Origin: Thelephora terrestris
Lineage: Eukaryota; Basidiomycota; Agaricomycetes; Thelephorales; Thelephoraceae
Reading direction: 5' to 3'
Length of the DNA: 36,893 bases
Assembly: GCA_015956445.1 (NCBI GenBank)
Contig: WIUZ02000041.1
Location: 1 to 36,893 of the forward strand
Shown here: positions 620-35,596 of the stretch, piece by piece
Position numbering within the stretch: the first letter of the stretch is position 1
How the letters are laid out: each line of letters begins with the position of its first letter
Notes under the pieces: generated by a model
The model's input: only the letters and a program-made list of their open reading frames with translations
What the model was told of the DNA's origin: nothing
Database searches by the model: none
Translations under genes and position numbers: made by a program

Positions 620-1151
620 ACCGAATATAGTTATTTTTTTGGCCGAGTTTTCTGGTGGCATCTGGAAAACCTTCGCCACTAGCGAGGATATTTGATGTGA
701 ATCAGGTGCTAACCGTGTCTATGTTGACGATCACAAATAGCAGTCCCACTATTCATAGTGCCGCCATAGTTTGGTTCGTGATGGGATAGTCGTTGCATAG
801 CCATTGCATAGCGAGTTGCTGGTGACATGATAGACCCAGAATAGCGACCTATCCGATCGGTTGTAGGTGCAAATAGCTCACTCGCTTTAGGTATAGGGCA
901 GCCTTCGTAAACCAATATATTCGGAGTGTTCTCGAAGTGGAGGTAGATTATTTCTAAGAGATACCTCCGCAAGCACTTTGTTCTAAGGACGACAAAACGG
1001 GTGGTCAAACCGGCAGGAGATCCACGTTCACATGGGTGGGTCTCGCTGATATGCTCAGGATAGGACCAGCCGGTCCTTTGGGCAATAATTCTTTCCTTTA
1101 TCAATGAATGTCAGTAGTCTAGATGTGAAGTCTGACACATGACGGAGTGAC
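620..1151. other. intergenic flank left of the Plavaka element
   Basis: This stretch lies between the stop of the partial gene and the stop of the element's minus-strand gene. The open frames here are short and carry no recognisable motif. The outer end of the transposon should lie within it, but I could not find a convincing terminal inverted repeat against the right flank (6648 onward). Confidence 0.4.
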
Positions 1152-3151
1152 CTACATCGTTCCCATGTAGATGGTCGATAGCAGTCGCGTGAGCTTGGCA
1201 CCGCCGTTCTTCGACAATTTGACTTGCTCGAACGAGTTGATATGTCCGAAGTAACGCTCCCGTTGCATTTCCTCGGAGATCGTAACCGGTCACCTTTCTG
1301 CAACCTCCGTAAGTGCAACTTCAAGCTGCGGATTGCGTCGATTTAGTTGCAAACTGAACATTGACAACAAGGGAACCTTACCAATGTCGTTGCCAAGCAA
1401 CCATCGGTATTGGGACCTCTGGCCCACGCTCTCCAGTCGGAACCCGAGACTTGAGGGACTTGTCACATTTGAAAAATGCCCGAGCAGGACGAGCATTGCT
1501 TGGTGCTGATATGGCGCGCTGCCATCAGGTTCATCTGTGAGCAACAAGGTGAGATATGCTTGAGAATCTTGAATGCCGGATCCCAATAGACAAACTCACC
1601 GCATTTGTCCTTGCGAAATGGAAGGCGTCGCAGTTCAAGAGCTTGGCAGCAGCGACAGCCTTTTCGGCGTGTGAACCCGATAACTTGTAAACGGACTTGC
1701 GCGCGTCTTTCTTCGCCTTCGTCTTCGCCTTCTCAGAGGGTTCTTTTTCTTTGGACAAACCAAGTCCCTTGCCACGTTTAGTACGGATTGACGGTAGCCA
1801 CTCCAACGATTCCGAATCTGTCGGTTACTGTTAGCTGTGAGAATTGCGCCGGGCTGAACCGGAAACCCTCAATTAATCACCATTGACAACAGGCAATTGA
1901 AATAATTGATGTCGACTCTTGCTCGTCCCCCACCTTGGTGATGACGTGGCTCTGATTCTCTGGAGAAAGTGCAAACTTAAGGCGTCTGCTAGCCACTGCT
2001 CTTGGACTTCAGTGTCTGGAAATGAATCGGTCAACACAAGGTTAGCATTTGCCCGCTTGACCGCCACGCTCAGGCAGTTATTGATCTCGGTGATTTGACG
2101 GTCTGTTTGTAGGACCCATCCTCAGCTTGAATCAACTCGGTAATGCTGGCCAACCCAGGATGGGTTGGGTGTGATCTATCGGGTTAGGGGACTGGTTGGC
2201 CGGTGGATGGATTTCTAGGACAGTTGCCAATGCGCCGCGATCGGATATATTCTCGAGTGAGTAATTGGGCTGTTGGAAAGACGGGCCAGGGACCGGGATC
2301 TGATTCACAAAACCAATCAGAGTCAATATCGATGATTGGTCGAGTGCGGTAGTGGTATAACCTACCTCTTTGACGAGACGCTCAATCCGTCTTCCACCCT
2401 AGCTGTGGTGAGATACAAAATACAAACTTATGTAGATGATCACCTACATTGGGACTGCGACAGGATACTTCATCGTTGCAACGTTACTAATGTTTTCAGA
2501 TGACTGGCTGGAACTCTATCACGTACCTCTTCGGTCAGTTGCGTTGCAGTTAGAGCCTCAAGCTCGTCCATCTCGTCCTCACTGGGTAACGGCGATGTGG
2601 CATCACCTGGGGATTGTAAGTTACCCTAATGCGGGAGCTGTAGTGGTTCTCACGAACCATTGGTAGTTTGGTACTGCAGGTCTTCCTCCCCATCTTCTGA
2701 ATCGGAGGAACGAGGGGGTCTTGTCGGCGCTTTCCTCCCAGCCACCTTTGACACGCGCGTCGCCGCCGCAACTGCAAAAACACAATTCAATACGGTGAGT
2801 ACAGATGAAGGAGCACCACACCCACCTTGTTCTGCAATGTCTGAGTTCGTTCCGGAGGTATGTTCCACAGGTTCCTGAATGTCGGCCAAAGGACGCGTCT
2901 TCTGTGCTTTTGCAGACTTTCTATTCGGTCGTTTTGCCGGTTGATCCACAAGCGGTGAGTCCTTTGCCTTCCGTTTCTGAGTCCCTGCATTCATGTGAGT
3001 AAGGAGTACTTGCAACTGTACAGCTGCTGTTACCGGCTTCTCCAACAGGAGGTTCCACCTCCTTGGTTGCCGCTCTGGTACGGCGGGTGGACGAGGCAGA
3101 CTTGGTCACATTTGGTGGAGATTTCTTGGTGGGTTGCTGTTTAGGTGGCAT
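1152..3151 (-). CDS. Plavaka-associated DUF6532-like accessory protein
   Basis: The start is the ATG at 3151 (MPPKQQPTKKSPPNV), giving a Lys/Arg/Pro-rich, probably disordered and nuclear N-terminus. Further short exons encode KDSPLVDQPAKRPNR, then SSDSEDGEEDLQ, then SEDEMDELEALTATQ. The C-terminal half reads RQITEINNCLSVAVKRANAN and SFPDTEVQEQWLADAL (about 2100-1980), then KLLNCDAFHFARTNA (about 1650-1600), EVPIPMVA (about 1425), and finally SEEMQRERYFGHINSFEQV, ending at the stop 1152-1154. This order (FPD motif with a Trp, a basic/helical middle, a PIPM-A block, a Y-GHI block) matches DUF6532 proteins as I know them. Several exon joins need one extra base (about 1970, about 1400), so the gene is either mis-sequenced or broken. 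The middle exons (about 2130-2470) are uncertain. Function unknown. Confidence 0.5.
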
Positions 3152-3315
3152 GGGGGAGGGGAGAGAGGTTCAACGTGGCGAACGTGGCTTCTGCCGGTTT
3201 TAAGGTACACACGGGCCAGGGACCAAAAATTCGTGGACTAAAAATTTATTCTCAGACGATTCCCTCGACTAACACACCTATTTTCCCACCACTTTCCCCC
3301 CAGCCCATTGCCAAC
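3152..3315. promoter_or_regulatory. shared divergent promoter of the transposon genes
   Basis: About 165 bp separate the two start codons of the head-to-head genes, so both must use this interval. It contains an A/T-rich stretch with a TTTAAGG-like sequence and the C-rich tracts common in fungal promoters just before the plus-strand ATG. No specific binding site is claimed. Confidence 0.45.
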
Positions 3316-6300
3316 ATGCACCAACAACCAACCGTCTGTGTCGTGGATGTGGGAAGTATTTCCGCCCAGGTGGGTATACAAACCACCTGAAACTATCTCG
3401 TGACCCCCGCTGCGTGTCTATTCGAAATTCGGTCTTCCCACTAGCCTCCAATGCACAACCTCGTTATCCAGACAATATCCCAACCCCTCAACATACATCT
3501 ACTCCCCCACCTTCTATGCCCAGGCGCTCAGATATGTCTGAAATGACATATCTTGACATCGAGATGACAGACGTTATGTCTGAAACAACACACCTTGATG
3601 TTGAGATGAACGACACTTGTATCGAGGAACAGGACCTCCTTTCAACAGACCACGAGCTGAATCCATCGCCCAGTCCGTCCGTCATGGCCAACAGTCACAA
3701 CACAGATGGGTTGAGTAGTTACGACGACTTGTTGGAGACAATTCCAGACCACTTGGCATCTCCCATCATTATCGGCTCGGACACCGATACCGATTTGTCG
3801 GATAGTGATGATGACCCCAATTTGTCTGATCACGATGATGATACACGCCAAATATGCCAGGATTCAGCGACGCCGCCTGGTAGGTGATTTTGGTTTCGAA
3901 AATTAAATAATTTATACTCATTGCAACTATCAGCCAACCAGGATGCCCCGATTGCAGAATCAGGGGGTAAACCTTTTGTCGTAAAATTTGGTGGGAGAGC
4001 CGGGGAAACGGTGGGGGCAGACGACAGGCACCTCGCATACACGCAATATTCTCAGGACCTTCAAGCAGAAGATGCGCCATGTGAATGGGCACCGTTCTCA
4101 AGTCGTGTTGATTGGGAGATCGCTCGTTGGGCAAAACTACGGGGCCCAAGCTCTACAGCTTTATCGGAGCTTCTGGGAATTGACGGCGTATGTTGATGCA
4201 TCATATGTCATTGACTACCTCGGTCCTAACACGAACCTTTGAACAGCTTGCAAGTGCATTGGGTCTTTCGTACTCAAGTGCTAATGAACTCAACCAAATC
4301 ATCGATAGGAAGCTTCCAAGTGGCCTTCCGGAATTTGTCCGTGAAGAAGTCACACTCGCTGGCCAGACCTATGAATTCTATCACCGCGATATTCTCCAAT
4401 GTATTCGTACCCTCTATGGAGATCCCGAACTTGCAAACTTCTTAGTGCACGCACCAGAAAGGCACTTCACTGGCCCGGATAAGGAAACTCGAATGTATTC
4501 CGAGATGCACACCGGAAAATGGTGGTGGACACGTCAGGTATAGCTCTTGGATGTTTTTTGGTTGAAGAAAACTCAGCTAACATGGTGTGGAACAGGTCGA
4601 ACTTGAGAATGAGTTTGGCGGAGTGACGATTGTCCCGCTTCTCATCTCTTCTGATAAAACCCGAGTTGTTATGTTTGGCACGAAGTCAGCATATCCGGTT
4701 TACCTTACAATCGGGAATATTCCAAAGGAGCTTCGCCGGAAACCATCGCGACGAACCCACGTTCTACTTGGCTACCTCCCAACCACTCCTTTGCATCACG
4801 TCTCAAGCACCGCCTCTCGCCGACGAATGGTCGCCAACCTCTTTCATTATTGCATGTCCCGAATTCTCGCACCGCTGAAACAGTTGGCCACAACCGGACC
4901 AATCGAAATGTCAACTGGTAATGGCGTCATCCGCCGCACCTTCCCCATCTTCGCATGTTTTATCGGGGATTATCCAGAGCAAGTCCTCGTGTCTGGGTGC
5001 AAAACCGGAGACTGCCCTAAATGTCCTACAAAGCAGCCGGAAATGGGGGAGTTTAAAGAGGATAATGATGAATACCGTGACCTTGCTGAAATCTTGGAGG
5101 CGCTGGCCACCTTCGAGAAAGATCCTGCTGGGTATAGCGCTGCCTGTTCTGAAGCCGGAATAAAGCCGATCGTCCACCCCTTCTGGCAGGACCTTCCCTA
5201 CTCAGATATTTATCTGGGAATCACCCCTGACGTCCTCCACCAACTCTACCAAGGAGTAATGAAGCATCTCATGTCCTGGGTCACGGCCGCCTTCGGTGAG
5301 AAGGAACTTGATGCGCGGTGCAAATCCCTCCCGCCCAATCACAACATACGATCGTTCTCCAAGGGAATCACATCCCTTTCACGGGTGACCGGGAAAGAGC
5401 ATGCTGACATGTGTCGCATTCTCCTTGGACTTGTCGTTGACTTGAAGCTCTCAAATGGCTCTTCCCCGATTCCCCTCATTCGCGCTATCCGCTCACTTCT
5501 TGACTTCCTCTACCTTTCCCAATACCCCATCCATACCTCTGAAACCCTCCGACTCCTGCATCAATCACTTGAGCGATTCCATGAGAACAAACACATCTTC
5601 ATCGAGCTTGGCATCCGCAACAATTTCAACCTCCCAAAGTTACACTCCCTCCTCCACTATGTCCACTCCATCAAAACATTCGGGACGACCGATAATTACA
5701 ACACAGAGTATACGGAGCGGCTTCACATCGACTTAGCAAAAGATGCTTACCGGGCAACGAACCACCGAGATGAATACGCGCAGATGACAGCCTGGTTACA
5801 ACGAAAAGAGAAAGTCCTTCGGCACGAAAGTTACCTCAAGTGGCGGCACACTCCTCGGTCAACGATCGTGCTCCGGTCAACCGACACGACCTATAACGGA
5901 ACTCTGACAGTAACGAAGTGGCCCTCGGTGCGAACGGTTAGCTTTGATGACATCATTAGCAAACATGGCGCAAGATTTTTCCGGGAAGCTCTCCGACGCT
6001 ACAGCGTCCTTGCTCAACACTCTGGCCCGCCACTTACGAGGAGCCAGCTTGAGCGTAAAATCTTGTATACCAAACTCCCTTCACAACCGTGTCTGTCTAC
6101 CATAGGCTCAAGTTTACAGCCCCTGGAGATACGACCTCAGCGAAGCGCGTCACCATGGACTCAATTCGTGCTCAGCCTGAGCGACGAACAAAGAAGGGGA
6201 AAAGGATTCCACCCCGCTTTGACACTGCCCTCTTGACTGTTGGCTCAAGTGAGGATACCGGCATGCAAGTATGTTCCACCTCTTTCCAAGGCCTATATCA

Positions 6301-6647
6301 CCCTCAATGTAAATCAAAGGATATCGTGTGGGCCAGGTTCGAGTTGTCTTCGCTCTACCGAGCGATATGGATGGGGTGTCGACTGGGCTTCTTGCATATG
6401 TCGAGTGGTTCACCAAGTTCACGGCATCTGATCACAATCACGAAATGTTTAAGTTGACTCGGTGTCTTGAAGGTGGTAAGCGGATAGCGAGCATCGTCCC
6501 TGTATCAACGATTAGGCGAAGCGTACACCTCTTCCCGAAATTTGGCCCCGCAGTACCAGACGGGTGGTCTTCAGATAACGTGCTTGACAAGTGCGCTTCA
6601 TTTATCTGAACCCATTTGCAGATAGACATATGTACCTAACTCTCTGA
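3316..6647 (+). CDS. Plavaka transposase
   Basis: Likely exons are 3316-3879, 3934-4187, 4247-4537, 4596-6268 and 6337-6647; all introns are GT-AG. An N-terminal C2H2-type zinc finger lies at 3339-3413 (CRGCGKYF, then a His, then DPRC), followed by an acidic linker with a 14-residue tandem repeat. The conserved transposase blocks are RWAKLRGPSSTALSELL, APERHF, MHTGKWWWTRQ, VYLTIGNIPKELRRKPSRR, GCKTGDCPKC, HPFWQDLPY, ITPDVLHQLYQGVMKHL, FGTTDNYNTEYTERLHIDLA and VPVSTIRRSVHLFPKFGP. Three single-base gaps interrupt the frame: 3331-3339 (before the finger), about 6088, and about 6605 (a T run just before the end). Allowing one base at each, the exon sum is 3096 nt, exactly 1032 codons. That supports the model and suggests a recently intact enzyme. 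It would cut and paste the element. Confidence 0.88.
3534..3617 (+). repeat. two-unit 42-nt tandem repeat in transposase exon 1
   Basis: Two back-to-back 14-codon units encode MSEMTYLDIEMTDV and MSETTHLDVEMNDT. They are followed downstream (about 3775-3860) by Asp/Ser-rich repeats (SDTDTDLSDSDDD). The units sit in the linker between the zinc finger and the catalytic part. Confidence 0.8.
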
Positions 6648-7644
6648 TATGTCGATTTGTTAAATAGTGGAGGTAGGGGGTGAACAACGAAATGGAACAA
6701 TGAATGGTTGGCGCGACCGATCTTGGCGGCGCTTTGGGGTATCGCTTCTGAATAGCCTATTTCAACAACATCACGAGAGTTTGAGGGGAGCCTGTCTTGA
6801 GGAGATCTCCTCTGCTTGCGAACGATGATTGAAACCGTTGAGGTCTCGGGAGTAGTAGAGAGGAAACGTACCGTGATCCATGCACAGGTTTGCGCCAACC
6901 CTATCTCGAATATCGCGACACGCTTATCGTGAGGCGGTGTCTTTTCTCTATGGGATGTTGTTTTCAACAAAGTTTTGAGTGTCTACAGAAAAAGGGTTCG
7001 GTCCAAAGCTGTGTGTTGGTCGTCTGTGTGATTGGTTCCATCTATTAAATGCCCAGAACCTTCACGATGGAACGGATGTGGGATGTGGATTGGGGGAGGA
7101 TAGGAGTTGGCTGAACCTTCATAAGTTGTAAGGTCCTGTCGAAGAAGCTGTTGGCGGCGAAGTCGGTGGCACGCAAAGACCGAGAGATGGGATCGCTGTT
7201 GGGATGGGGGAGTGGGTTCAGACGGCAAGGGCAGCGGTTGGTTGAGGCGATGGAAAAGGTTATGAAGAAGAAAGCTAGAGGTGGGAGCCCTGTACACATG
7301 CCTTGGGGCATCCGACGACAGATATTTACCTTCCCAGGACCCGGCAAAACACGGTGTCGCTGGGCAGGACGTGCAAGCCGTTTTGTATGGCGAATGGCGG
7401 TGACAGACGCTCACGGAAGATCCCGAAAAAACGAGTCAGGCGCCGGGATATTGATGGATAATCCCGCATAGACTCAGATAACTTCATATAGCGTCGCTTA
7501 GTCGGCTAAGTTTTCCAGATGGGGTCGCGACGGATCGCTCTCGAGATTTGGCCAAGCCCACTCCGTTGTCAGGTTGAGAAGGCGTGTACGTCGATCAGAT
7601 ACCGTCTCTACCCTATTGTGTAGCTACCCTTTCATGGAGATCAT
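6648..7644. other. intergenic region, right flank of the transposon
   Basis: About 1 kb between the transposase stop and the TRM44 stop. Open frames on both strands (for example 7151-7471 plus and 6983-7414 minus) lack recognisable motifs and overlap each other, which suggests chance. The right end of the transposon should be here; no terminal repeat was identified. Confidence 0.4.
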
Positions 7645-10669: not shown

Positions 10670-12948
<2,279 letters not shown>

Positions 12949-17550: not shown

Positions 17551-18374
17551 TCACTGTAAGCTCGGTGGATCAGTCTCGTCCGCCGAGAACTTGTGCTTCT
17601 GGGGTGCGGCGACGGCAGTCATGCCCTTACCGCTCCCGGTCACACCGACTGTCGAAAGGAAAAGACAGGCCTCAGAAACGTCACATCGGAACGATCAGAA
17701 CGGAACGAAATCGCACCCTTGCCCATCGGGTTGTCTGGCGTCTTGAATATGCTCGTACCCGCAACTCCGGCGATGTGAATTCCCTTCTTCTCGCTCTTCT
17801 TCGCAAATTTTTTCCAAGTGGCCTGTTTTTCGTTCTGCTCCTTGGCCTTTTGCGCCCTGACTTCAACCTTCTTCTCGTTCTTCTTTTTCTTTCGCTCCCG
17901 CTCCTCCTCTTCGACTTTGGTCATCTTTCGTTTGTTGCTGGTCGATGCCAGATATGGGTTGTTTGACGCTTGGTAGTTGGGCGGTATGGCCTTGATCGAA
18001 GAGGAGTTTACGAGCTCCGTCGAGTTGTAGACTTTGAATACGATCGTGTACACCCTGTTCTCGACCGATCCACCGACAGAGGCGATCCTAGCCGGATACC
18101 ACTGGCCGTCCGACGAGTATTTCGCCAGACACTCGTCACCGGCTTTCCAGTTCGGCGTAAAGGTCGGCTGCGCGTTCTGTTTCTTGGACGAACCGGCGGC
18201 CGAAGAGGAAGTGCTGGCAGCGCCTTGCTGAGCGAGAGCCTGCTCCGTGAGGGAAATCAACTCTTTCAGTTCCTTGTGGAGATCGTTCAACCCATCGTTG
18301 TCAGGGTCGTTCGAGAGGGCGACTTCGACCTGTTGTAGCTGGACTTGGTAGGTTTCGAGGTCCTCCTTGTTCAT
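17551..18374 (-). CDS. SPF30: Tudor-domain splicing factor SPF30 (SMNDC1 homolog)
   Basis: SPF30 joins the spliceosome during assembly of U4/U6.U5 tri-snRNP with the pre-spliceosome; its Tudor domain binds symmetrically dimethylated arginines on Sm proteins. Two exons, 18374-17717 and 17648-17551, are joined across a 68-nt GT-AG intron, giving 251 residues, the usual size. The N-terminus is helical (MNKEDLETYQVQLQQVEVAL). The Tudor domain is at about residues 75-130 (WKAGDECLAKYSSDGQWYPA, with YTIVFKVY and the NSTELV strand). A Lys/Glu-rich helix (KVEEEERERKKKKNEKK) follows, then the family signature KSIF-type block SIFKTPDNPMGKVGVTGSG and KGMTAVAAPQKHKF. The frame is clean, with no indel. 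Confidence 0.93.
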
Positions 18375-18811
18375 CTCGAGGTTAGACAGGTCGTGTGTGT
18401 GTATATGTGTGTACAGAGACCCCAGAGATTGGAAATAGATGTTGTGTATAGGAAAATAGGGGGTGGTATGACCTGGAATGACCCGCGGTGATGGTGATAG
18501 GTCGGTTCAAGGGCGTGCGAAGCGGATATCAAACAAACCGTCGGTCGATCGCGCGTTCCGATTCCGACCTTCGGCTGGGCCGTGTCAAGGATGGAAGGCA
18601 GAATGTATACATGCTATTCATACAGTCTACAGCCATATGGTGCATAGGGGGTGGGGTGGTTCGTGTAATCCACGAGAGATACGATACAGTCGGGCGTATA
18701 CTGACAAGTTTATACGCGTACACTACCAAGAGAAAGCGGTCCGATTGAGAGAGAGAGAGAGAGAGGACAAGAATAAAAAATCGAGCCAGGCGACGAGTAG
18801 AAAACATGGGG
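18375..18811. other. intergenic, SPF30 promoter side with simple repeats
   Basis: Contains a GT-rich tract (18392-18413) just upstream of the SPF30 ATG and a GA tract (18747-18766). No gene is supported. It serves as the SPF30 5' region and the 3' region of the minus-strand gene ending at 18812. Confidence 0.5.
18747..18766. repeat. (GA)10 microsatellite
   Basis: Ten uninterrupted GA dinucleotides in the interval between SPF30 and the next minus-strand gene. Confidence 0.9.
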
Positions 18812-19798
18812 TCATCGTTGAGCCAGGCGTCTCCGGGTGTCTAGTTGGAGTCGAAGGTTGCCGTTCTGTAAACATACCAATAGAGGTTAGCAAGGGGGGT
18901 CTGGGCGGTGCTTATCCCCATCCGAGATGGACTAGGAGTCAACAGGGATCGGAGTTGGCTTACATCACGTTGAAGCTCTTCCAACCTAATCTTGATCTTT
19001 TGAACGTCGTGGCCGATGCCCCCAATCATGGACTAAAGCAAAGCCGATACCGGAACACCGCAATGAGACACTCCGGCCGAGGTGAAGGGACAGTGAAACG
19101 CTAACTCACCACTACAGTCTTCGACCGGACGCCGTGTATCTTCTCGAGGCGTTCGAGACTCACGGGGTAGAGCTTGCTTTCCAGAAGTTGGGCGTGGAGG
19201 GCGTCCACGTGAGCTTCGAGGCTCGAAACATATACCTTTCGACGCTCTTGGGCCTTCATTTTGTTGCTGAAGCGAAACACAGCGTCGAAACGAGACCGAT
19301 CAGGTTGAGGAAAACATGAGGGAGGAAATGAAGGGCTTACAGTTCCTCAGGGCTGAAGAGTCTGCGTTCGAACATGTGATCCCAAACCTTGCGGCGCTTT
19401 ACACCGTCGACGTCCTTCTTCGCCTCCGGGCGAGTGTATGGGTACGTCCCAGACGGAAGGGAGTCGACGTTCCGCTTCTGGCGGACGACCCCACTGGATT
19501 TGGGGCGCGGTTTGTACTCTTCCGGACTTGGGGCCGAGAGATCTGCAGACCCATCGACGGTCATTGGGCTCTGGGCCTCGGGCTCAGACAAGGGAGAGAG
19601 CCTTGCAGTAGAGGAGAACTGCAACGCCTCCGATAACGAGTTGGAGGACTCGGTGCACCACCACGCCGCGTCGGTCGGAGCCGACGCTATATCGGATAGT
19701 TCTGGTTGATACCGGTCGTCGAGTTGGCCGAGGGCGAGGAGGGTCATGTCGGGGATAGTGGGCAGAGTCAAGGGGGAACTGTCGAGAGGTGGGTACAT
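18812..19798 (-). CDS. regulator-like coiled-coil protein, member A of a divergent paralog pair
   Basis: The start is the ATG at 19798 (MYPPLDSSPLTLPTIPDMTL). Exons: 19798-19341, 19266-19110 (157 nt), 19032-18964 (69 nt) and 18865-18812; the sum is 738 nt, 245 residues with a clean frame. The N-terminal half is Ser/Pro-rich and acidic, as in activation regions. A basic patch (KKDVDGVKRRKVWDHMFERR) precedes a module QERRKVYVSSLEAHVDALH, YPVSLERLEKIHGV, SMIGGIGHDVQKIKIRLEEL with heptad-like Leu/Ile spacing. This resembles conserved agaricomycete proteins I know only as uncharacterised. A basic patch followed by a helix suggests DNA binding and dimerisation, but it is not a canonical bZIP. The module is shared with the plus-strand neighbour at 20531. 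Confidence 0.75.
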
Positions 19799-20530
19799 GG
19801 CTTGGAGCGGGAGGGGAACGGGAATGCGTAATAGAGGGAGGTGAGCATGTTTTGATACAGGGTACGGTATAATATGGAGGCGTCCCAGGTCAGTAAGAAA
19901 ATCAAATCGAAGAAACAGGTTCCTGGTGGTCGGCTCGGGAGTCCGTCCGGATTTGGCTTCGATCTTCCGACGGCAACCATCATGCGCAAACAAAGCCCCC
20001 GTGGAACTGTATGTCGTTCGTATGTGGTAAGGCCGGAGAGGGGCGAGCGAGAGAGAGAGGATAGATGGCTAATCTATGCTTTCCTGGTGCTCGACGAGGA
20101 AAAAAAGGCAAACGATCCTCCCCATTGATCTTCGGTGTGTACGTATCGTGTTTTCTCCAAATATGGAAATCTCGACTGGGAATTTTCGTGGTTCGGCAAG
20201 CCGAAAAATAGGAAAATAAGAAATGAATAAAGAGAAAACTGCCGCAGCGGGTTTGCGAGTACTGTTTAGCCTGAATTGCAATCCCGTGCGGGAACCCTGA
20301 CGAGATGTCTCGATCCTCCTTTCTTCCACATTCTTTTTCTTTTTCTCTCTGTTCTCTGTTTGAAAACCTTTTCGCCACATCTGAGATTGACGCGCTTACA
20401 TTTCTCTCCATCATCCACCGTTCGGGCAAATCCTTGGTCAACTACCGCGCCTCTCCTCCAATATAACTCCCCACCGGAATATCAGCCATGTCCCCTCTCC
20501 GTAGCCCTCTCCGTCCCTCTGTTTCCCCGG
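19799..20530. promoter_or_regulatory. 732-bp bidirectional intergenic region of the paralog pair
   Basis: Lies between the two divergent ATGs. The right half is rich in C/T tracts (20318-20350 and 20490-20520), typical of fungal core promoters before a plus-strand start; the left half contains GA tracts (20040-20060), the mirror signal for the minus gene. The minus-strand frame at 19980-20441 and the plus-strand frame at 20276-20635 are judged chance apart from the true plus start. Confidence 0.5.
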
Positions 20531-21960
20531 ATGTCCGCCTACTTTTCCACCACCGCTTACCCAACCTACCAGCAGTTCTCACCCTCGGTATGCTCATTCC
20601 CTCCCGCTCACTCCACTTCCATTCCCTCCTTCTGACAGTCTAACCTCACCAGGCCAATCTGTCGGGGTATCCGTCGATAATTGCAGGCGCTGACTATGTC
20701 GATCCTCACACCCCCAGTCCGGCGTCGGCGACCTTCACATTATCCGACCTCTTCTCACAGCAGTCCACCCTCCCGGATTCGCCTTTCCAGTACACAAGCG
20801 CCTACTCTCAGCTATCCGGATCTGAGTACACCCCAAGCCCGCCGAATACCGGTTATTTGGCACCTCAGACTCTGCTACAGAGGCAGCCTCGCCCGACCAC
20901 AGGTCGTCACACATGGGGTGTCCGTCCAGATCCCAACCCAATGCCCTGTGCTTTAGAGAACGATCCGATTCCGAGCATCCGTCGTGCCTCGCTACCACCC
21001 AGCCGATTGGCCACCGGACTGCCGTCTCCTTCTCTAGATGCGGACTTCCCACTGAGCGCACACAGCGATGGTAGCTTCAGCACCGCCAGGTTTGGTATCG
21101 CGAATCTCGACCGAGATAAAGGCTGCGGTTCATCCAGCTCAACCCCCACACCCAGCCCCACTCCGAGTCCAACCTCGGCTACCTTCTCGCCCTCATCCTT
21201 CCATCCCAGCATTAGGTCGGAGGTATCCTCAGACTCGGGTCGTCGAAGCCCTTCCCAATCAAAACACACCGATTCCCGCCGTAGGCGCGCGGACAGACGG
21301 CGCTCCAAGTTACTTGAAATTGCTTCCGTTCTCCCGTTCAGAGCAACCGACCCGTGAGTCCCGTCGACTGCGCGGACCCTCCCTCTTACCTCTTATTCCC
21401 AAGTGCTGATCGATTGTTTCTTTCGGTTCGACAGTGACGAAATGTCTTCTCACGATAAGAGACGTTGTTATGTCGGTACGCTCGAGGAGTACGTCATCTG
21501 GCTCGAGAAGGAGATGAAAGTCTTTGGCGGTGTTCCAATCTCAATGAAGAAGGTCGCCAAAAGCAAGGGCATGAGTTGTCGTTCGCTAAGAGTGGGTCAT
21601 GATCGCAACCGCTCTCGTCTTTGAAATTTGATGAACTAACCACATGATTCAGACAATGCTAGCTCACTTCCAAGATGAAGCGCACAAGCTTCATGAACAG
21701 GTTCAAGCCCAAGAAAGAGAGGTCCGTTTTCTGGTTATCTATCACCTCAGACACCGGTAATAATCTTCTTCCAGGCGCTGGAGCTCCAAGCGTTGCTCGA
21801 CGAAGAAGAGCACCGTGATCAACAGGCTGGTCTGGGGTCAACCTTAAGCGCTCCATCGTGTGCTCCAATCTCCGGTCCATTCACGACTGTCCCAATTCAT
21901 CCGCAACCGCCATATCGTCCCCTGATATCCGCTTCTCATCTTCAAGGATACGAATATTGA
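20531..21960 (+). CDS. regulator-like coiled-coil protein, member B of a divergent paralog pair
   Basis: Exons: 20531-20587, 20653-21353, 21435-21591 (157 nt), 21653-21721 (69 nt) and 21775-21960; the sum is 1170 nt, 389 residues, clean frame, all GT-AG. It starts MSAYFSTTAYPTYQQFSPS. A long Ser/Pro/Thr-rich region follows, including a TPSPTPSPTS repeat, then the basic run SRRRRADRRRSKLLE, then the module DKRRCYVGTLEEYVIWLEKE, VPISMKKVAKSKGM, TMLAHFQDEAHKLHEQVQ and a Glu/Gln-rich helical tail. The layout is that of a nuclear regulator: disordered activation-like region, basic segment, helical module. The two internal exons have the same length and phase as those of the minus-strand neighbour. 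The family is not named by me. Confidence 0.78.
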
Positions 21961-27112: not shown

Positions 27113-28302
27113 ATGGCTTCCTCCGTTCACAGTTCGCTGCCGGCCCCAGCGCTCCACGCTTCCAAAGCAGCATTGAATGCTGCCCTCTCTGACATTGAAG
27201 CTTCTGAACCTGGCGAGGTCCAGGAAATCGAAGTCGATATGGCGGCTCAGGCCGAAACGCTCAAAACCGTGTTCAATGACCCAAAAAATTTCAATGTCAA
27301 GGTACGCGTTTCCCTAAAACGCCTTTTCCCCCTTCACGCGGGAGGATTCGCGAAGCCTGTCTTTGAAAACCTCGCGGTGGTGAATCTTGTGCTCATCTTG
27401 CCCACGTGTTTTTAGCATCCACTCTATTCCGCATGGACGTTGTGGTTCGATTCGCCTGCGACGAAAGGTCGTAATCTGCCACAGACTCCGGTGACGGCGT
27501 TCCCCCAGACCCGCACCCAGGAACACCCGGCGGGCGGCAGCTCACGGGTGGATGGAGGATATCAAGAGGGTCATCAATATAGATAGTGTCGAGGAGTTCT
27601 GGGGGTGCGTCCAGTCGTGTGATTCTCAGAGAGCGCTTCGGTTGACCTTTCCTGCCAACCAGATTGTACAATAATATTCTACCACCCTCCGCCCTGCCCC
27701 AAAAGGCCAATTACTATCTTTTCAAGGTAAGTCATCGATCTGCCACACTTCTCGCCACTTTCAACATTTGCCTTCATAGGAGGGGATCATCCCTGCTTGG
27801 GAAGATGAGGCCAACAAACTTGGCGGCAAATGGAGCATCCAGCTGCCTAAGGAGAAGAACCGTAGGCATGTGGATACTCTATGGCTGTATACCGTACGTC
27901 TCCGTCCGATCCGTTTCTAACCGCTTGCTTCACCCGCGTTTCCTAATTCACCCTCGTTCATGTGTACAGATGTTGGCTGCTATCGGAGAGACATTTGACC
28001 CCTACCTGACGGATCCTGAACTCTTGGAGCCCCACCCCGAATCATTGGTCACCGGGGTCATCGTCTCCTCCCGCCCCCAGTTCTACCGTATTTCCATCTG
28101 GACAAGGAGTGCTCCTGGTATCAACAGCGAGGATGACGACAAACTTCGACAGCGAATAGAAGGGATCGGTAGGCATTTCAAGACGAGCGTGCTGGGGTAC
28201 AACGAAGGGCAGAAGTTGGCCGGACCACTCGCCACGGAAGTTGAGTTCATCTCCCACAAGGATTCGGAGAAGAAGGGCAAGGGGAGGAAGATCACTGTGT
28301 GA
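27113..28302 (+). CDS. translation initiation factor eIF4E
   Basis: The cap-binding subunit of eIF4F. Exons: 27113-27301, 27416-27604, 27663-27726, 27780-27893, 27970-28302, all GT-AG. Signature blocks in order: HPLYSAWTLWFDSPATKGRN, LPQTPVTAFPQT (a fungal insertion), WMEDIKRVINIDSVEEFWG, LYNNILPPSALPQKANYYLF, WEDEANKLGGKWSIQLPKE, DTLWLYTMLAAIGETF, RISIWTRSAPG. The cap-stacking tryptophans are in FWG-type positions and in WEDEAN. Exon 2 changes frame between PQT and WMEDI. One base missing at about 27511 (C run) and one at about 27536 (G run) restore both frames, and the exons then total 891 nt, 296 residues. Because eIF4E is essential, sequence error is more likely than a null allele. Its last exon is the left breakpoint of the downstream tandem duplication. 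Confidence 0.93.
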
Positions 28303-28628
28303 TAGTTTTGTGGGGGGTTTCTCTTGTGAACCCTCCCATGTTCGGTTGGCTACCCACCCGTCTATGTGGTGGGGTAGAACATATGCTTGTAGTTATTGTT
28401 GTCCTCCGTGCTTTCTCTGGAACCAGCTGTGATCGAAATATACGATATTCGAGGACGGGTTCACCCAGACAGAGTTTCCTACCTCAGTTTGACGTTGGCC
28501 GCAACTCCCCTCTGGATTTGAGGGTGGATTCCAGCCTACGACCACGGAGAGTACCTTCGAGTCTTTCGACTAGTATGCTTTCTGGGAAGTCCGATGATTC
28601 AGGTAGCTGAATTCAAGGTCACAGAATC

Positions 28629-28638
28629 ATATATATAC
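28629..28638 (+). promoter_or_regulatory. TATA-like element of F-box copy A
   Basis: An ATATATATAC stretch lies about 100 nt before the ATG at 28733. The same motif at the same distance precedes the ATG of copy B, so it was duplicated with the gene. A TATA role is inferred from position only. Confidence 0.35.
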
Positions 28639-28732
28639 TTCCTTGTATATGACCGTTTACGTCGCGGGCGCTTCCCCCTACATCTCCTCGCCTCCACCGC
28701 AGCAGATCATCGAATCGTCTGTTGACCCCAAA

Positions 28733-30220
28733 ATGGCTCGCTCAGAGGACAATAGGCATGTCGAATCTTCTCGTCACGGAGAATCTTCCGTCCGTACGTG
28801 CACAAACGCGTTTTATCTAATTTATTGATACCAATCTGGCAACTCACAGTTAGAAAGCTCACCATCTGGTGGCCACACGTCGTCGTGACCCAGTCGTCTC
28901 TACGAATTGTGCAATTCTTATGACTCAGCTGGAGCGATGGACTTACCTCGAGACGTCGTCGAACATATCTTATACTTCCTGTGCGAGGATAAGAGAACGC
29001 TCAGGTTGTTTCGCTGACCTGCCGTGGCGTTATTCTCTGCGGCCCGAAGACTGATCCACAGGAAGATCGAGCTGGCGACGTGGAAGGTATATAGTCCCTC
29101 AAAATTGGCGGATAGGGTCGCGGTGAAGGTTACTCCAGCTCGAAGGTTCGCGAGGCGAAATGCAATATCTATCTGTGGCTGGGGGGCGAGGGCTCTTGGG
29201 TTATACTCGGGAGCTTATCATCGCCATCGGACCGAGTTTCTCTCCGGAGACGCTCGAGACATGCCTCCACCAATTCCGTTCCTTCGAGCAGGTCCAAATT
29301 CTGAGGATCCATCAGTTCGACCTCGCGAGCTTCCTGCCCCCACTTCGAGCGATACTTCACACAATTTGTCCCGACCTTGCGTTCGCTGCACCTCCCGGAC
29401 GTTGTGGGTAGCGATCGTGAGGTGCTGGAGTTCATCTGCAAGTTCCCACGTACTTGACGACCTGTCCCTCAAGCTATCCTCAGCTTGTTCACCGACGATC
29501 CCCCGAGGCCATCCATGGAGCCCTCTCCGCCGTTGAGGGGGAAGCTGATACTGAGGGGATGGGGATTTCCTCCTTCGCGGTTTTCTATTGGAGATCCCAG
29601 GAGGACTCCACTTTCGTTCAATCGATGTGGGCAAAGTGGGCAAAGCGAATTTGGACGAAGTCCTGGTCGCATGTCGTCTACTCTTGAGGAGTTTTCCTTT
29701 TCTCAACGTCTAGTGAGTTGACCTCAAACTATATCCTGCTGTTGAGGGGCGACGATGGATCAACTGAACTGACCTCCTCGTTATCCAGTACGGGATGCCG
29801 TGGACTTGAGCCACAATTTGGTCCTCAAGCGGTTTGAACTCCGTGTCGATCCTGACGATCTGTCTTACATCCCTATCTCCTGCACCGACTCCTGCCCACC
29901 ATAGCTTCCCCGGTATTCTCTGAGTTCGTCCTCAAACTCGAAGGCGAGCCCGCTCCACCTCGTCCCGTTCCCGAGATTACCGACAGAAGAATTTGGGGAG
30001 ACGGGTGGGAATGATTGACGATATCTTGCACGGTAAGATCCTTGAGATCGGCGGGGACATTCGGTTTCCGTTCGGGTCGGGGGAGTTCGGCGGATTGTTT
30101 TGGACTTCTGACCCCTGGAGAGTTTGTGGCGCGCATGCTTCCGTCGTTGGGTGCGAGAGGTTTGGTGAAAGTTGAGATACCGGGGCTCAGTTGGGCGGAG
30201 GGTGAGCGGTTCATTGGTAG
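28733..30220 (+). pseudogene. F-box protein gene, copy A, decayed
   Basis: The start MARSEDNRHVESS, first intron and overall order match copy B (31251-32716). Relative to B, copy A lacks one base in the F-box (CTCAGGTTG against CTCAAGGCCG, about 29003), has an extra G soon after (about 29026), an extra C in CTGCCCCC (about 29336), an extra A in CACGTACTTG (about 29452) and lacks a C at about 29490. The longest intact piece is MQYLSVAGGRGLLGYTRELI through SFEQVQILRIHQFDL (29160-29411). Some breaks may be sequencing errors, but more frame breaks separate A from the ancestral frame than B. If expressed it could not make the full protein as written. Confidence 0.65.
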
Positions 30221-30378
30221 ATTCCGGTTTTCGATGATTAGCACGGTGTACCGAAGCTCGTTGCATTCTTGTATGGTATGCGCTGGTTGTATATGTAGAA
30301 ACCCCACGCGGGGACAGTAGGTAGGGGTCCAACAAATCACTATATCCCTCACCCCACACCGATAGTGCACGTGCGCAA

Positions 30379-30710
30379 ATGGCAACCCCCTTCGACTCCG
30401 CCTCAGACGAAAATCTGCCTGAATTGGAGAGAGAGAGCTCGGTCACATACCCCCCCCCCTCCCGACCGATAGCTACGAAAGTTTGCGTGATTTGTCAGGA
30501 TCACCTCAGGTTCCGTTCCTTCAAAACCCACAAAAGTTCTCCGACTGGACGATATGGGCCCGCAAAGCAATGGCAACATTCCACATAGTCGAGTGCCTTC
30601 GGAATTTAAAATTGTGCATTACAGTCGTTAAGGTACATCGCGTACACTCTAAAAGAGTGCTCTACATCCAAGAAGTACATAGAGTACCAATAGGGCACAA
30701 TGTGGTATGA
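30379..30710 (+). pseudogene. small gag-like ORF, unit A
   Basis: An ATG at 30379 starts MATPFDSASDENLPELERES; after a C run the frame moves to one reading VPFLQNPQKFSDWTIWARKA, then MATFHIVECLRNLKL. The pattern of a short target peptide, N-x-F-x-x-W, then a helical segment recalls the N-terminus of copia-type gag proteins. A relic of such a retroelement is a guess. The same ORF is in unit B at 32870. Confidence 0.3.
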
Positions 30711-30744
30711 TGATGTAGATCGCTCCGGGTAACAGAATCCTACT

Positions 30745-30811
30745 GAGCCCCATCCCGAATCATTGGTCACCGGGGTCATTGTCTCCTCCCGGGAGGAAGA
30801 TCACTGTGTGA
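30745..30811 (+). pseudogene. eIF4E last-exon remnant
   Basis: About 46 bp match eIF4E from 28027 (coding LEPHPESLVTGVIVSS), then the sequence jumps to the last codons (KITV, stop at 30809-30811) and on into the copied 3' region. It has no upstream exons and cannot make eIF4E. It marks the duplication junction. Confidence 0.88.
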
Positions 30812-31141
30812 TAGTTTTGTGGGGGCCCCGGTTTCCCTTGGGAACCCTCCCATGTTGGGTTGGCTACCCACCCGTCTATGTGGTGGGGTTGAACATATGC
30901 TTGTAGTTATTGTTGTCCTCCGTGCTCTCTCTGGAACCAGCTGTGATCGAAATATACGATATTCGAGGAGGGTTCCAACCTGACAGAATTTCCCACTTCA
31001 GCTTGACGTTGGGCGCGTGACTCCCCTCTCTGACTTTGAGGCTGGATTCCAGCCTGCGACTGAAGGAAAATACTTTCGACAAACGAGTCTGCTGTCTGGG
31101 GAAGTCCGCTGATTCAGGTAGCTGATTTCAAGGTCACAGGT

Positions 31142-31152
31142 TCGTATATATA
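31142..31152 (+). promoter_or_regulatory. TATA-like element of F-box copy B
   Basis: A GTATATATAC stretch about 100 nt before the ATG at 31251, matching the element before copy A. Confidence 0.35.
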
Positions 31153-31250
31153 CTTCCCCGTATATGACCGTTTACGTCGCCGGGCGCTTCCCCCTACATC
31201 TCCTCGCCTCCACCGCAGCCTCAGATCATCGAATCGTCTGTTGATCCCAA

Positions 31251-32716
31251 ATGGCTCGCTCAGAGGACAATAGGCGTGTTGAACCTCCTCGACAAGGAGG
31301 CTCTTCCGTCCGTACGTGCACAAATGCGTTTTATCTAATTTATTGATACCAGTCTGGCAACTCACAGTCAGAAAGCTTCGCAATCTGGTGGCCACACGTC
31401 GTCGTGACCCAGTCGATCTCTACGAATTGTGCAATTCTTATGAATCAGCCGGAGCGATGGAGCTACCTCGAGATGTCGTCGAGCATATCTTATACTTCCT
31501 GTGCGAGGAAGAGAACGCTCAAGGCCGTTTCGCTGACCTGCCGGGCGCTATTCTCTGCGACCCGAAAATTGATCCACAGGAAGGTCGTGCTGACGACGTG
31601 GAAGGTGTATAGTCCCCCAAAATTAGCGGGTAGGGTCGCGGCGAAGGTACCTTCAGCTCGGATGGCTCGCGAGGCGCACATGCAATACCTATCTATGGCT
31701 GGGGACGAGGGCTCTTGGGTTATGCCCGGGAACTTATCGTCGCCATCGGACCGAGTTTCTCTCCGGAAACGCTCGAGACATACCTGCACCAATTCCGTTC
31801 CTTCGAGCAGGTCCAAATTATCAGGATTCATCGGTTCGACCTCACGAGCTTCCTGCCCCACTTCGAGCGATACTTCACACAATTTGTCCCGACCTTGCGT
31901 TCGCTGCACCTTCCAGACGTTGTGGGTAGCGATCGTGAGGTGCTGGAGTTCATCTGCAAGTTCCCACGTCTTGACGACCTGTCCCTCAAGCTGTCCTCAG
32001 CTTGTTCCACCGATGATCCCCCGAGGCCATCCATGGAACTTTCTCCGTCGTTGAGGGGGAAGCTGATACTGAGGGGATGGGGATCTCCTCCTTCGCGGTT
32101 TCTATTGGACATCCCAGGAGGACTCCACTTTCGTTCGATCGACGTGGGCAAAGTGGGAAAAGCGTATTTGGACGAACTCCTGGTTGCATGTTCGTCTACT
32201 CTTGAGGAGCTTTCCTTCTCTCCGATTTCTAGTGAGTTAGATTATCCTTCTGGTGAGGGCGATGATAGATCACTGAATTAACCTCTTCTTTCTCCAGTAC
32301 GGGATGCCGTGGACTTGAGCCACAATCTGGTCCTCAAGCGGTTTGAACTCCGCGTTGATCCTGACGATCTGTCTTACCTCCCCTATCTCCTGCACCGACT
32401 CCTGCCCACCATAGCTTCCCCGGTGTTCTCTGAGTTCACCCTCAAACTCGAAGGCGAGCCCGTTCCCAATCGTGTCGTTCGCGAGCTCACAGATAGAGCA
32501 ATTTGGGGAGACGGGTGGGGAATGATTGATGATATCTTGGACGATAAGATCCTTGAGATCGGCAGGGACATCCAGTTTTCCGTTGTGGTCGGGTGTTTCG
32601 GCGGAGTCTGGTCTCGTGGCCTTGGACCGTTTGTGGCCAGCATGTTTCCGTTGGGTGCGAGAGGTTTGGTGAAAGCTGTGGCAGAGGGATTTGGTGGGGT
32701 TGAACAGTTCTTTTAG
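31251..32716 (+). CDS. F-box protein with LRR-like C-terminal part, copy B
   Basis: Likely an SCF ubiquitin-ligase substrate adaptor. Exons: 31251-31311, 31368-32231, 32298-32716, joined by GT-AG introns. The F-box lies at about residues 50-90: LPRDVVEHILYFLCE, then RTLKAVSLTCRALFSATRKL. The remainder is Leu-rich with LRR-like strands: LHQFRSFEQVQIIRIHRFDL, LRSLHLPDVVGS, LDDLSLKLSSACS, LEELSFSPIS, NLVLKRFELRVDPDDL, and the end GARGLVKAVAEGFGG. Compared with copy A, it lacks two bases at about 31510 (GAGGAAG against GAGGATAAG) and one G at about 31702. These sum to three, and adding them back restores the F-box frame. Such proteins form large, fast-evolving families in agaricomycetes. Functional or recently broken cannot be decided from sequence alone. 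Confidence 0.65.
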
Positions 32717-32869
32717 TAGATTCTTTCCTCGATGATAAGTACGGCGGACCGGAGCTTCGCTGCATTCTTGTATGATGCGCCAGTTGTTTATAAACCCACG
32801 CGGGGACAGTAAGTAGGGGTCAAAAAAATCCCATATCCCTCACCCACACCCGATAGTGTACGTGCGAAA

Positions 32870-33180
32870 ATGGCAACTCCTTCAACTCCCTCGCCTCAAA
32901 CGAAAATTTTGCCTGAATTGGAGAGGGAGAGCTCGGTCACATACGCCCCCCGACCGATAGCTACGAAAGGTTGCGTGATTTGTCCGGATCACCTCAGGTT
33001 CCGTTCCTCCAAAACTCACAAAAGTTCTCCCGACTGGACGATATATGGGCCTGCGAAGCGATGACAATGTTCCACATAGTCGAGTGCCTTCGGAATTTAA
33101 AATTGTGCATTACAATCGTTAAGGTACATCGCGTAAATTCTAAAGAGTGCTCTAAATCCAAGAAGTACATAGAGTACTGA
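32870..33180 (+). pseudogene. small gag-like ORF, unit B
   Basis: The copy of the ORF at 30379: MATPSTPSPQTKILPELERE, then after a C-run frame change VPFLQNSQKFSRLDDIWACE and MTMFHIVECLRNLKL. The change from DWTIW to RLDDIW comes from small indels between the copies. It has the same doubtful retroelement link. Confidence 0.3.
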
Positions 33181-33458
33181 TAGGGTACAATGTGGTATGA
33201 TGTAGATCGTTCCGGGTAACAGAATCCTACTTGCAAAAGTGGGGCAGGACGTGGAGTGTAGCATGCATAGCAGAGGGTCGTGGTTGGAGCCGCTGGCCTG
33301 TGAGATGAGTACGTTTCGCCAATGGGGCAGAAACAGATTTTGTAATGGAGGGACCGCCAAATTATCAGACCGTTACCCCCCCGCCTGGATCACCGGACGG
33401 GATCCAGATAGCCTCGACAAGGAGGTCAAGGGTGGTGTAGCCCACCCCACTCTGATGC

Positions 33459-35596
33459 TTAATGCGCGGCAAACTTGGATTTTGCCCTCAGCCTAGGGCC
33501 GATTTTGTAGAATATAAATCTTCCCGAAGGAACCCCGTCAGCGAAACTTCCAGAGTCTTGCTGATGAAAAACTCACGGGAGAGGTGCGAACACGGCCGCT
33601 AAACCCGCGACCAACGCGGTCGCGCCGACGGTTCCCAGAGTCTCGTACATCGCCGAGGTGAACAACGGAAACGCGCATGCGAAACAGCTCCTGATGAAAC
33701 TGTTGCTGGCGAGCACCGAAGCGGCGATGGGCCGGTAAGCGCTAATGAGGTATGTGAACACGGATGTGAACGTGTAGCAGATTCCCATTCCGAAGGGAAT
33801 CGAGCCGATGATTGGGACGATCCAGTGAACAGAACGATAGGTCGTGAACGCGATCCAGAAGAGACCGATTGGGATGAGGATACCGCCGACTTGGCCCATG
33901 ATGAGCCTGGATTCTGGCCTGACGCTGCCGTGCTTTGGATTTCCTTGAGCGTAAGTCTACACGAGCTGGGTCAACCGAGCGGTTAAGAAAAGGCTGTTGG
34001 TCTAATACCTGTTCCAATATGGTTGTGATAGCGACGCTAAGATCATGCCGACACCGATTCCAAGGAAACTTAGTCCGATAAACTCTTCGCTGAATCCGTG
34101 AAGTCCGAAGATAATGGGGAACGCCTGGAATGCGAGGTACAGGATTCCAAGGGTCAAGGCGGTCCTATTGAAAATCTGGTTGAGTTTCAGAAGGGTGGTA
34201 TAGAAAGTTAGCCTACCAGATATCGAGAAGTAAGACCATCCTGTCGTACAACAACACCTCTGTCGGATCATCAAAAATGAGTGGGGTCAGAAGAAGGCGT
34301 GTTGCTAAACTGCTTACGGAAAGGCCGGTAACAGCTGATGATGGTCAATCGAAGTAAGGAGGGGTTTTCCTTCTCCAAGAGAGAATAGTAGCGTTCGTCA
34401 CCGGTCTCCTTTCGTAATCTATGAGAGAAATCAGTGTGAGGGCTCGGGGAGCGAACTGGTGGAGTTCCCTACCGCACGGCTTTCTTTCTCTCTAGAACGG
34501 GAACATATGTTTCCCGCACCTACATGGTTGTATGAGCGAAGCCACACGGCGATGTAAGAGAGAACACTCACGAAAAGAAGAGCGACGAGAACGACAAATA
34601 CCCAAATGATAATGACATAAAGGTCCACCTCCAGTCAAGGTTCTATAGAGGGTCAGCCGGGAAATCATACTACTTACCAAACGGAAACTCAACTCACTTG
34701 GTTGATAAACCCCGCGGCTAATGGGCCGATCACTGGTCCGAGAAATGGTGCCATACTATAAACCGACATCGGACTGATGAGATAAGAGCAGAAAGAAGAG
34801 GGTCAGTTTTTCATCGCCGGGCCATTCGCCACGAACACGGTCTGAAACTCACCTTCCGAGGTTGGCAGGAGAGAACAGGTCGCTTACAGTGCCCCCAGCC
34901 ACGGACAGGAACGCAGCACCACAGAGGCCAGTTATGAAGCGGAAAAAGATAAGAACGGCTGAGACGATAGAAGAGGTGGGGTGAGGGGGGAGTTTTCGAC
35001 GAGAGAGAGAGAGATGAGACGCACCGGCGTTGGGGGCAAACGCTACTGGCCAGGAGAAGATAAAGAACCCAGCGAACGAACCCAGGTAGACAGGATTCCG
35101 ACCTGTGGAAGATTTGGTATGAACCGGCGGAGAAGGTAAATCGTGCAGCATACCATGTACCTCGGATAGCGGCCCCACAAGCAGAGGACCAGTTCCAAGG
35201 CCCATCAAAAAGAGGGATATAGGTAGAATAGCAACGGTGCTAGATATGCCGAACTCCTCCATAATCCCTGCCTCAACGAAAGCAGCCTATAAGGGTCGAT
35301 GCGTTAATTCTAAGAGCCCACGGGGAGGTCTATTCCGTGTAAAACTCGCCATTGATGATGCTGAAGTCACACACATCGCACCTGAGCTGACAATCAACAC
35401 GATGACCCACTTATACCAGGTCGCCATGTTCTTCGGATCTTCACTCTCTAGAGTGATCCCATGGTGAGAGGCTCTTTTCACTGGCGCTGATGTCACTCTC
35501 TATGGGAGAGCCAATGGCTTTCTCAGGTGCCTCAGGATCATGATCTTGTACAGGGTCGGTTGTGGCTGTCTGGGAAGAACGCAGAGAAGCAGTCAT
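33459..35596 (-). CDS. MFS transporter, DHA1 drug/polyamine-resistance type
   Basis: A plasma-membrane proton antiporter family with 12 membrane helices; the substrate is unknown. The start is MTASLRSSQTATTDP at 35596, a polar cytosolic N-terminus. Then LESEDPKNMATWYKWVIVLI (start of helix 1), AGIMEEFGISSTVAILPISL, GTGPLLVGPLSEVHGRNPVY (motif A-like loop), FFRFITGLCGAAFLSVAGGT, MAPFLGPVIGPLAAGF (motif C-like), WRWTF, the family signature ETYVPVLERKKA and LRKETGDERYYS in the central loop, GILYLAFQAFPIIFG, and SAYRPIAASVLASNSFIRSC. The last exon ends IFYKIGPRLRAKSKFAAH, with the stop at 33459-33461. About ten exons with short introns. Single missing bases are needed at about 35455 (PWDH/LESED) and about 34620 (WRWTF/YVIIIW, a T run). 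The exon between RPF (about 34320) and GILYL (about 34150) and the join after SQPYWNR (about 34010) are uncertain. Confidence 0.88.

What the first reader, a model, noticed from the sequence alone, without database searches (positions are those of the whole stretch)
18812..21960. Divergent gene pair is an ancient inverted duplication with preserved exon structure
The minus gene (245 aa) and plus gene (389 aa) have unrelated N-terminal regions but share a C-terminal module. Read from the sequence: two consecutive internal exons are exactly 157 nt and 69 nt in both genes. The flanking intron phases agree (phase 2 before, phase 0 between and after). The encoded 75 residues align without a gap, with 15 identities (for example RR-K/R-V/C-YV, LE--V--L, PVS/PIS, HG/KG, SM/TM). 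Each is preceded by a basic patch. A head-to-head arrangement over a 732-bp shared promoter, kept while protein identity dropped to about 20 %, suggests co-regulated partners. Inference: the products may heterodimerise through the module, with the basic segments touching DNA.
Basis: partly seen in the sequence, partly recalled or inferred. Interest (0 to 1): 0.75.

Follow-up and report, generated by a model that had tools for sequence, protein, structure and literature searches.

The report
Head-to-head gene twins of unnamed family
Two fungal genes that point away from each other carry the same zipper-like segment, cut by introns at the same places, so they are old duplicates; that they work as partners on DNA is a reasonable guess, not shown.

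Summary
Gene A (minus, 19798..18812, 245 aa) and gene B (plus, 20531..21960, 389 aa) each hold consecutive 157-nt and 69-nt exons with equal intron phases 2, 0, 0. The encoded modules align without a gap: 15 identities, 43 positives of 76 columns; BLASTP E 1e-8; 0 of 20000 fixed-register shuffles as good. Two hand-made queries bridging A and B find both genes and no third in the 40.6-Mb assembly, beyond their near-identical copies on contig C58. Old inverted duplication is the best reading. Pfam, NCBIfam and PDB sequences give only chance matches. The module reads as a basic helix, a break, then a zipper in one heptad register in both proteins. Module columns 4-27 weakly resemble the bZIP fork, but the bZIP Asn and Arg are absent at the aligned positions. 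Heterodimerisation, DNA binding and co-regulation are untested; the charge pattern does not favour the heterodimer. Fungal proteomes could not be searched, so age and spread of the pair are unknown.

The parts
19341..19798 (-). Gene A exon 1 (152 codons plus 2 nt); Ser/Pro-rich N-terminal part
   Evidence: one C fewer in the C58 copy at 19489
19110..19266 (-). Gene A exon 2, 157 nt, first part of the shared module
18964..19032 (-). Gene A exon 3, 69 nt, zipper part of the shared module
18812..18865 (-). Gene A exon 4, end of the zipper, basic C-terminus and stop
19799..20530 (.). 732-bp gap between the two start codons; candidate shared promoter
   Evidence: no functional evidence
20531..20587 (+). 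Gene B exon 1
   Evidence: start codon not verified
20653..21353 (+). Gene B exon 2, Ser/Pro/Thr-rich, ends with the basic patch
21435..21591 (+). Gene B exon 3, 157 nt, first part of the shared module
21653..21721 (+). Gene B exon 4, 69 nt, zipper part of the shared module
   Evidence: weak donor GTCCGT
21775..21960 (+). Gene B exon 5, end of the zipper and C-terminal tail

Best explanation
A and B descend from one gene that was copied in inverted orientation next to itself (shown as far as homology, intron positions and the lack of a detected third copy can show it). Each protein has a Ser/Pro-rich N-terminal part, probably disordered, a basic stretch, and a C-terminal helical module: a basic first helix with two heptads, a break at the Pro-x-Ser, a short helix, and a zipper of four to five heptads in the same register in both proteins (sequence pattern and low-confidence models). 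Inferred: the zipper makes parallel dimers, A-A, A-B or both, and the basic segments take them into the nucleus, where they act as regulators on DNA or chromatin. The head-to-head layout would let one promoter region set both genes.
For: Gapless module alignment, BLASTP E 1e-8, 0 of 20000 shuffles. Three intron positions equal in place and phase. Two bridging queries hit A and B (E 1.4e-13 and 1e-10; 1.7e-5 and 1.3e-6) and no other place up to E 10 apart from the C58 copies. The same heptad register is the best of seven in both A 201-237 and B 301-337; shuffles as good: 17 of 20000 and 239 of 20000. An Asn at a zipper 'a' position in A, typical of parallel dimers (recalled). Models of exons A2 and B3: helix 5-29, then 37-44 or 37-43, mean pLDDT 75 and 72.
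Against: No known DNA-binding family matches. No expression, localisation or binding data. Charge pairs do not favour A-B (by hand). Searches are exon by exon: query A missed B and query B missed A at E 10, so a third member as far from both could be missed even by the bridging queries.
Confidence: 0.5

Rival explanations
1. The module is a far-derived bZIP: the fork between basic region and zipper is kept, but the DNA-contacting Asn and Arg are gone and the zipper was interrupted and rebuilt. The pair might then modulate true bZIPs instead of reading DNA.
For: hhalign against two bZIPs of the same genome aligns 24 columns at exactly the fork (P 0.0025); ungapped scores reached by 3 and 2 of 5000 shuffles in two of four comparisons.
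Against: hhalign probability only 11.8%; the other two comparisons were reached by 308 and 251 of 5000 shuffles; shuffles do not keep helix periodicity. Pfam's bZIP model finds 8 places in this genome at E 0.1, not these. In A the one N-x7-R near the fork (N154-R162) lies three residues out of bZIP register (by hand).
Confidence: 0.2
2. Ordinary leftover of tandem duplication: the two genes diverged to unrelated jobs and the head-to-head layout is only the scar of the event.
For: About 20% identity; only short repeats in the gap between the genes; charge pairs do not favour the heterodimer (read by hand).
Against: Same heptad register and intron positions kept; adjacency kept despite deep divergence.
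Confidence: 0.3
3. The resemblance is convergence of two amphipathic helices and the equal exon lengths are chance.
For: Low identity; helical repeats raise similarity scores; 1 of 1000 full-protein shuffles reached the observed score.
Against: 47 of 84 positives with no gap, E 1e-8, plus three matching intron positions and phases.
Confidence: 0.04

Closest known systems
bZIP transcription factors (PF00170)
   Same: RR-K/R-x-Y-V-x-x-L-E-x-x-V-x-x-L fits the junction of basic region and zipper of two bZIPs of this genome
   Different: Asn and Arg of N-x7-R absent at the aligned positions (read by hand), only two heptads before a Pro break, no match to the model
bHLH and bHLH-zipper factors (PF00010)
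   Same: General order basic stretch, helix, break, helix with zipper (reading by eye; bHLH layout recalled)
   Different: No profile match: hhalign probability 0.1% against three bHLHs of this genome; not among 13 places found by the Pfam model at E 0.01
HD1/HD2 mating-type homeodomain pair of basidiomycetes
   Same: Divergent pair of two different regulators that work as heterodimer (recalled; searches list papers holding these terms, such as PMC8305134, of which only the listing and the start of the abstract were seen)
   Different: No homeodomain in A or B; the two copies of the locus in this assembly carry no substitution between them

Membership tests
bZIP | Match to the Pfam bZIP profiles | tested here: not met
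   0 families for A; for B only HAUS6_N and New_glue at chance level; neither gene among the 8 places
bZIP | N-x7-R with Leu ten residues after the Arg (recalled; seen in L027) | tested here: not met
   pattern; aligned positions hold Glu/Gln in A and Thr/His in B (by hand)
bHLH | Match to PF00010 and the His/Asn-x3-Glu-x2-Arg core (core recalled) | tested here: not met
   Pattern absent in both proteins; not; hhalign 0.1%
Homeodomain (HD1/HD2) | Homeodomain | tested here: not met
   6 places in the genome, none in this window; none
Inverted duplicate gene pair | Homologous coding parts in opposite orientation, adjacent | tested here: met
Inverted duplicate gene pair | Same intron positions and phases in the homologous part | tested here: met
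   on predicted splice sites without RNA evidence
Co-regulated heterodimer pair | Co-expression and physical complex | not testable with these tools
   No expression data; no complex prediction offered

The most novel reading that the evidence does not exclude
A and B are founding members of an undescribed family of fungal zipper regulators that is kept as one head-to-head locus because the two products form an obligate pair, a second HD1/HD2-like invention built from another fold, perhaps from a bZIP that lost its DNA-reading residues.
Probability: 0.13. Interest if true: 0.65.

Novelty: new variant of a known kind. Interest (0 to 1): 0.4.

Why it matters
If adjacency and orientation hold in distant fungi, this would be a compact natural case of how a self-pairing protein turns into two partners that stay locked together in the genome, and would put a name on a module for which Pfam gave no match here. 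If not, it is an ordinary pair of old duplicates.

Tried and rejected
A third member on C60 (1465397-1465540, 36% over 48 aa, E 0.32): rejected as chance, because the bridging queries do not return it and I saw no matching second exon behind it when reading the frames by eye. Relatives in prokaryote and viral collections: 27 and 76 pattern matches, 0 confirmed. Solved structures by sequence: one match each for three queries, at E 0.99 (a GCN4 coiled-coil construct), 1 and 0.64, taken as chance. Fold search of the A2 model: one match at E 8; the B3 model was not searched. Papers: seven searches. Five aimed at this pair or its kind (one search found 0 papers, one search listed 12 of 175) and no listed title or abstract start describes this family; the other two were on Plavaka transposons and HD1/HD2 (6 of 13 listed). 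No paper was opened, and theme words cannot find an unnamed family. Promoter symmetry: two direct and three inverted short repeats in 732 bp.

Full report
WHAT IS THERE. Gene A runs on the minus strand from 19798 to 18812 in four exons (458, 157, 69, 54 nt; 245 aa). Gene B runs on the plus strand from 20531 to 21960 in five exons (57, 701, 157, 69, 186 nt; 389 aa). The start codons lie 732 bp apart. All seven predicted introns are GT..AG, 53 to 98 nt long. G+C by codon position in A is 0.61, 0.44, 0.68, like the in-frame RIO (0.53, 0.39, 0.61) and eIF4E (0.55, 0.43, 0.67) stretches of the window; in the module exons of B it is 0.61, 0.41, 0.49, and flat in all of B (0.55, 0.55, 0.56) (the Tudor stretch in that call was not cut in frame and is left out, the transporter gave 0.58, 0.52, 0.53). 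This supports A and says little about B.

MORE THAN CHANCE. The 157-nt and 69-nt exons of the two genes encode 76 columns, counting the split codon, that align without a gap: 15 identical, 43 positive by BLOSUM62, score 74; 0 of 20000 shuffles in fixed register reached it, and 0 of 3000 shuffles reached the local score of 77. BLASTP of 89-residue pieces gives 18 of 84 identities, 47 of 84 positives, E 1e-8, the match running past the third intron. Against this, with full proteins 1 of 1000 shuffles of B reached the observed score. Intron phases are 2, 0 and 0 in both. Homology is the only sensible reading.

HOW MANY. The window is a whole contig (C36) of a 40.6-Mb, 60-contig assembly of unknown completeness. 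Query A found only itself and its C58 copy, plus one weak place on C60 (E 0.32); query B found only itself and its C58 copy. Neither found the other gene, so those two searches are too weak to count paralogues. Two bridging queries, one mixed by hand from A and B and one made up, found both A and B, each in C36 and C58, and nothing else up to E 10 (6 of 6 matches each). So the family has two detected members here, in one place. C58 matches the window at 99.66% over 29458 columns, with 93 indel columns and 6 counted substitutions, two of which lie in the end of a transposon and are alignment artefacts. C36 is best seen as a second copy of the same chromosome region, by haplotype or assembly.

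WHAT THE MODULE IS. Pfam and NCBIfam give nothing above chance for A or B. PDB sequence searches give one chance-level match per query. Models of the 52-residue exons A2 and B3, from a two-sequence alignment, show a helix at 5-29 and a short one at 37-44 or 37-43 (mean pLDDT 75 and 72, pTM 0.40 and 0.41); Foldseek of the first gave one match at E 8. From A201 and B301 on, hydrophobic residues follow heptads in the same alignment register, the best of seven in both (17 of 20000 and 239 of 20000 shuffles as good). A has an Asn at one 'a' position. The opposite-charge g-e' pairs, read by hand from that register, number 4 in A-A, 3 plus one Asp-His in A-B, and 2 Glu-His in B-B; the Asn faces Ala in A-B. 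This does not single out the heterodimer.

RELATION TO KNOWN FACTORS. Two bZIPs and three bHLHs of the same genome, 2 of 8 and 3 of 13 places found, served as yardsticks. Module columns 4-27 align to the bZIP fork with hhalign P 0.0025 but probability 11.8%. In ungapped comparison, two of four pairs were matched by 3 and 2 of 5000 shuffles, the other two by 308 and 251 of 5000. The aligned places of the bZIP Asn and Arg hold Glu and Gln in A, Thr and His in B (by hand). bHLH gave probability 0.1%. So it may work like a zipper factor, but it is not a member of bZIP or bHLH by the tests made.

MECHANISM. Shown: common origin, layout, intron positions on predicted splice sites, heptad pattern. 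Inferred: dimerisation through the zipper, nuclear location through basic stretches (strong in B, modest in A), a regulatory role, and shared control by the 732-bp gap, in which only short repeats were found.

LIMITS. Scans of the prokaryote and viral collections confirmed no relative. Five paper searches listed nothing that plainly describes the family; no paper was opened. One C in A exon 1 is missing in the C58 copy, which may be an assembly error or a broken allele.

Noticed in passing
window 659-7521: About 6.86 kb present in the window and absent from contig C58, with a Plavaka transposase ORF (PF18759, E 1e-81) and 12-bp inverted ends CATCTGGAAAAC; a transposon insertion that differs between two near-identical copies of the region, so probably recent.
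   Followed up: partly
window 28282-30744 and 30791-33231: Each of these two adjacent stretches of about 2.5 kb also matches the other's place on C58 at 88% and 89%: a tandem duplicate; parts of their reading frames look alike.
   Followed up: no
window 19489: One C fewer in the C58 copy inside gene A exon 1; it would shift the frame there.
   Followed up: partly
window 7509-36893 against C58: 93 indel columns but only 6 counted substitutions (2 of them artefacts at the transposon end) between two near-identical copies, 73 of the gap columns in the window: looks like uncorrected sequencing error.
   Followed up: partly
L018 (C58:1893001-1903000): A homeodomain match, with a WFQNKR motif close behind it, lies about 35 kb from the C58 copy of the pair; C17 near 474-476 kb has three homeodomain matches close together.
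   Followed up: no
window 17640-18506, 11647-12642, 27646-28302, 33573-35286: Neighbours: a Tudor-domain protein, a RIO kinase piece, an eIF4E-like piece and a major-facilitator transporter in pieces, of which 34849-35286 passes Pfam's cut-off and 33573-33956 does not.
   Followed up: no
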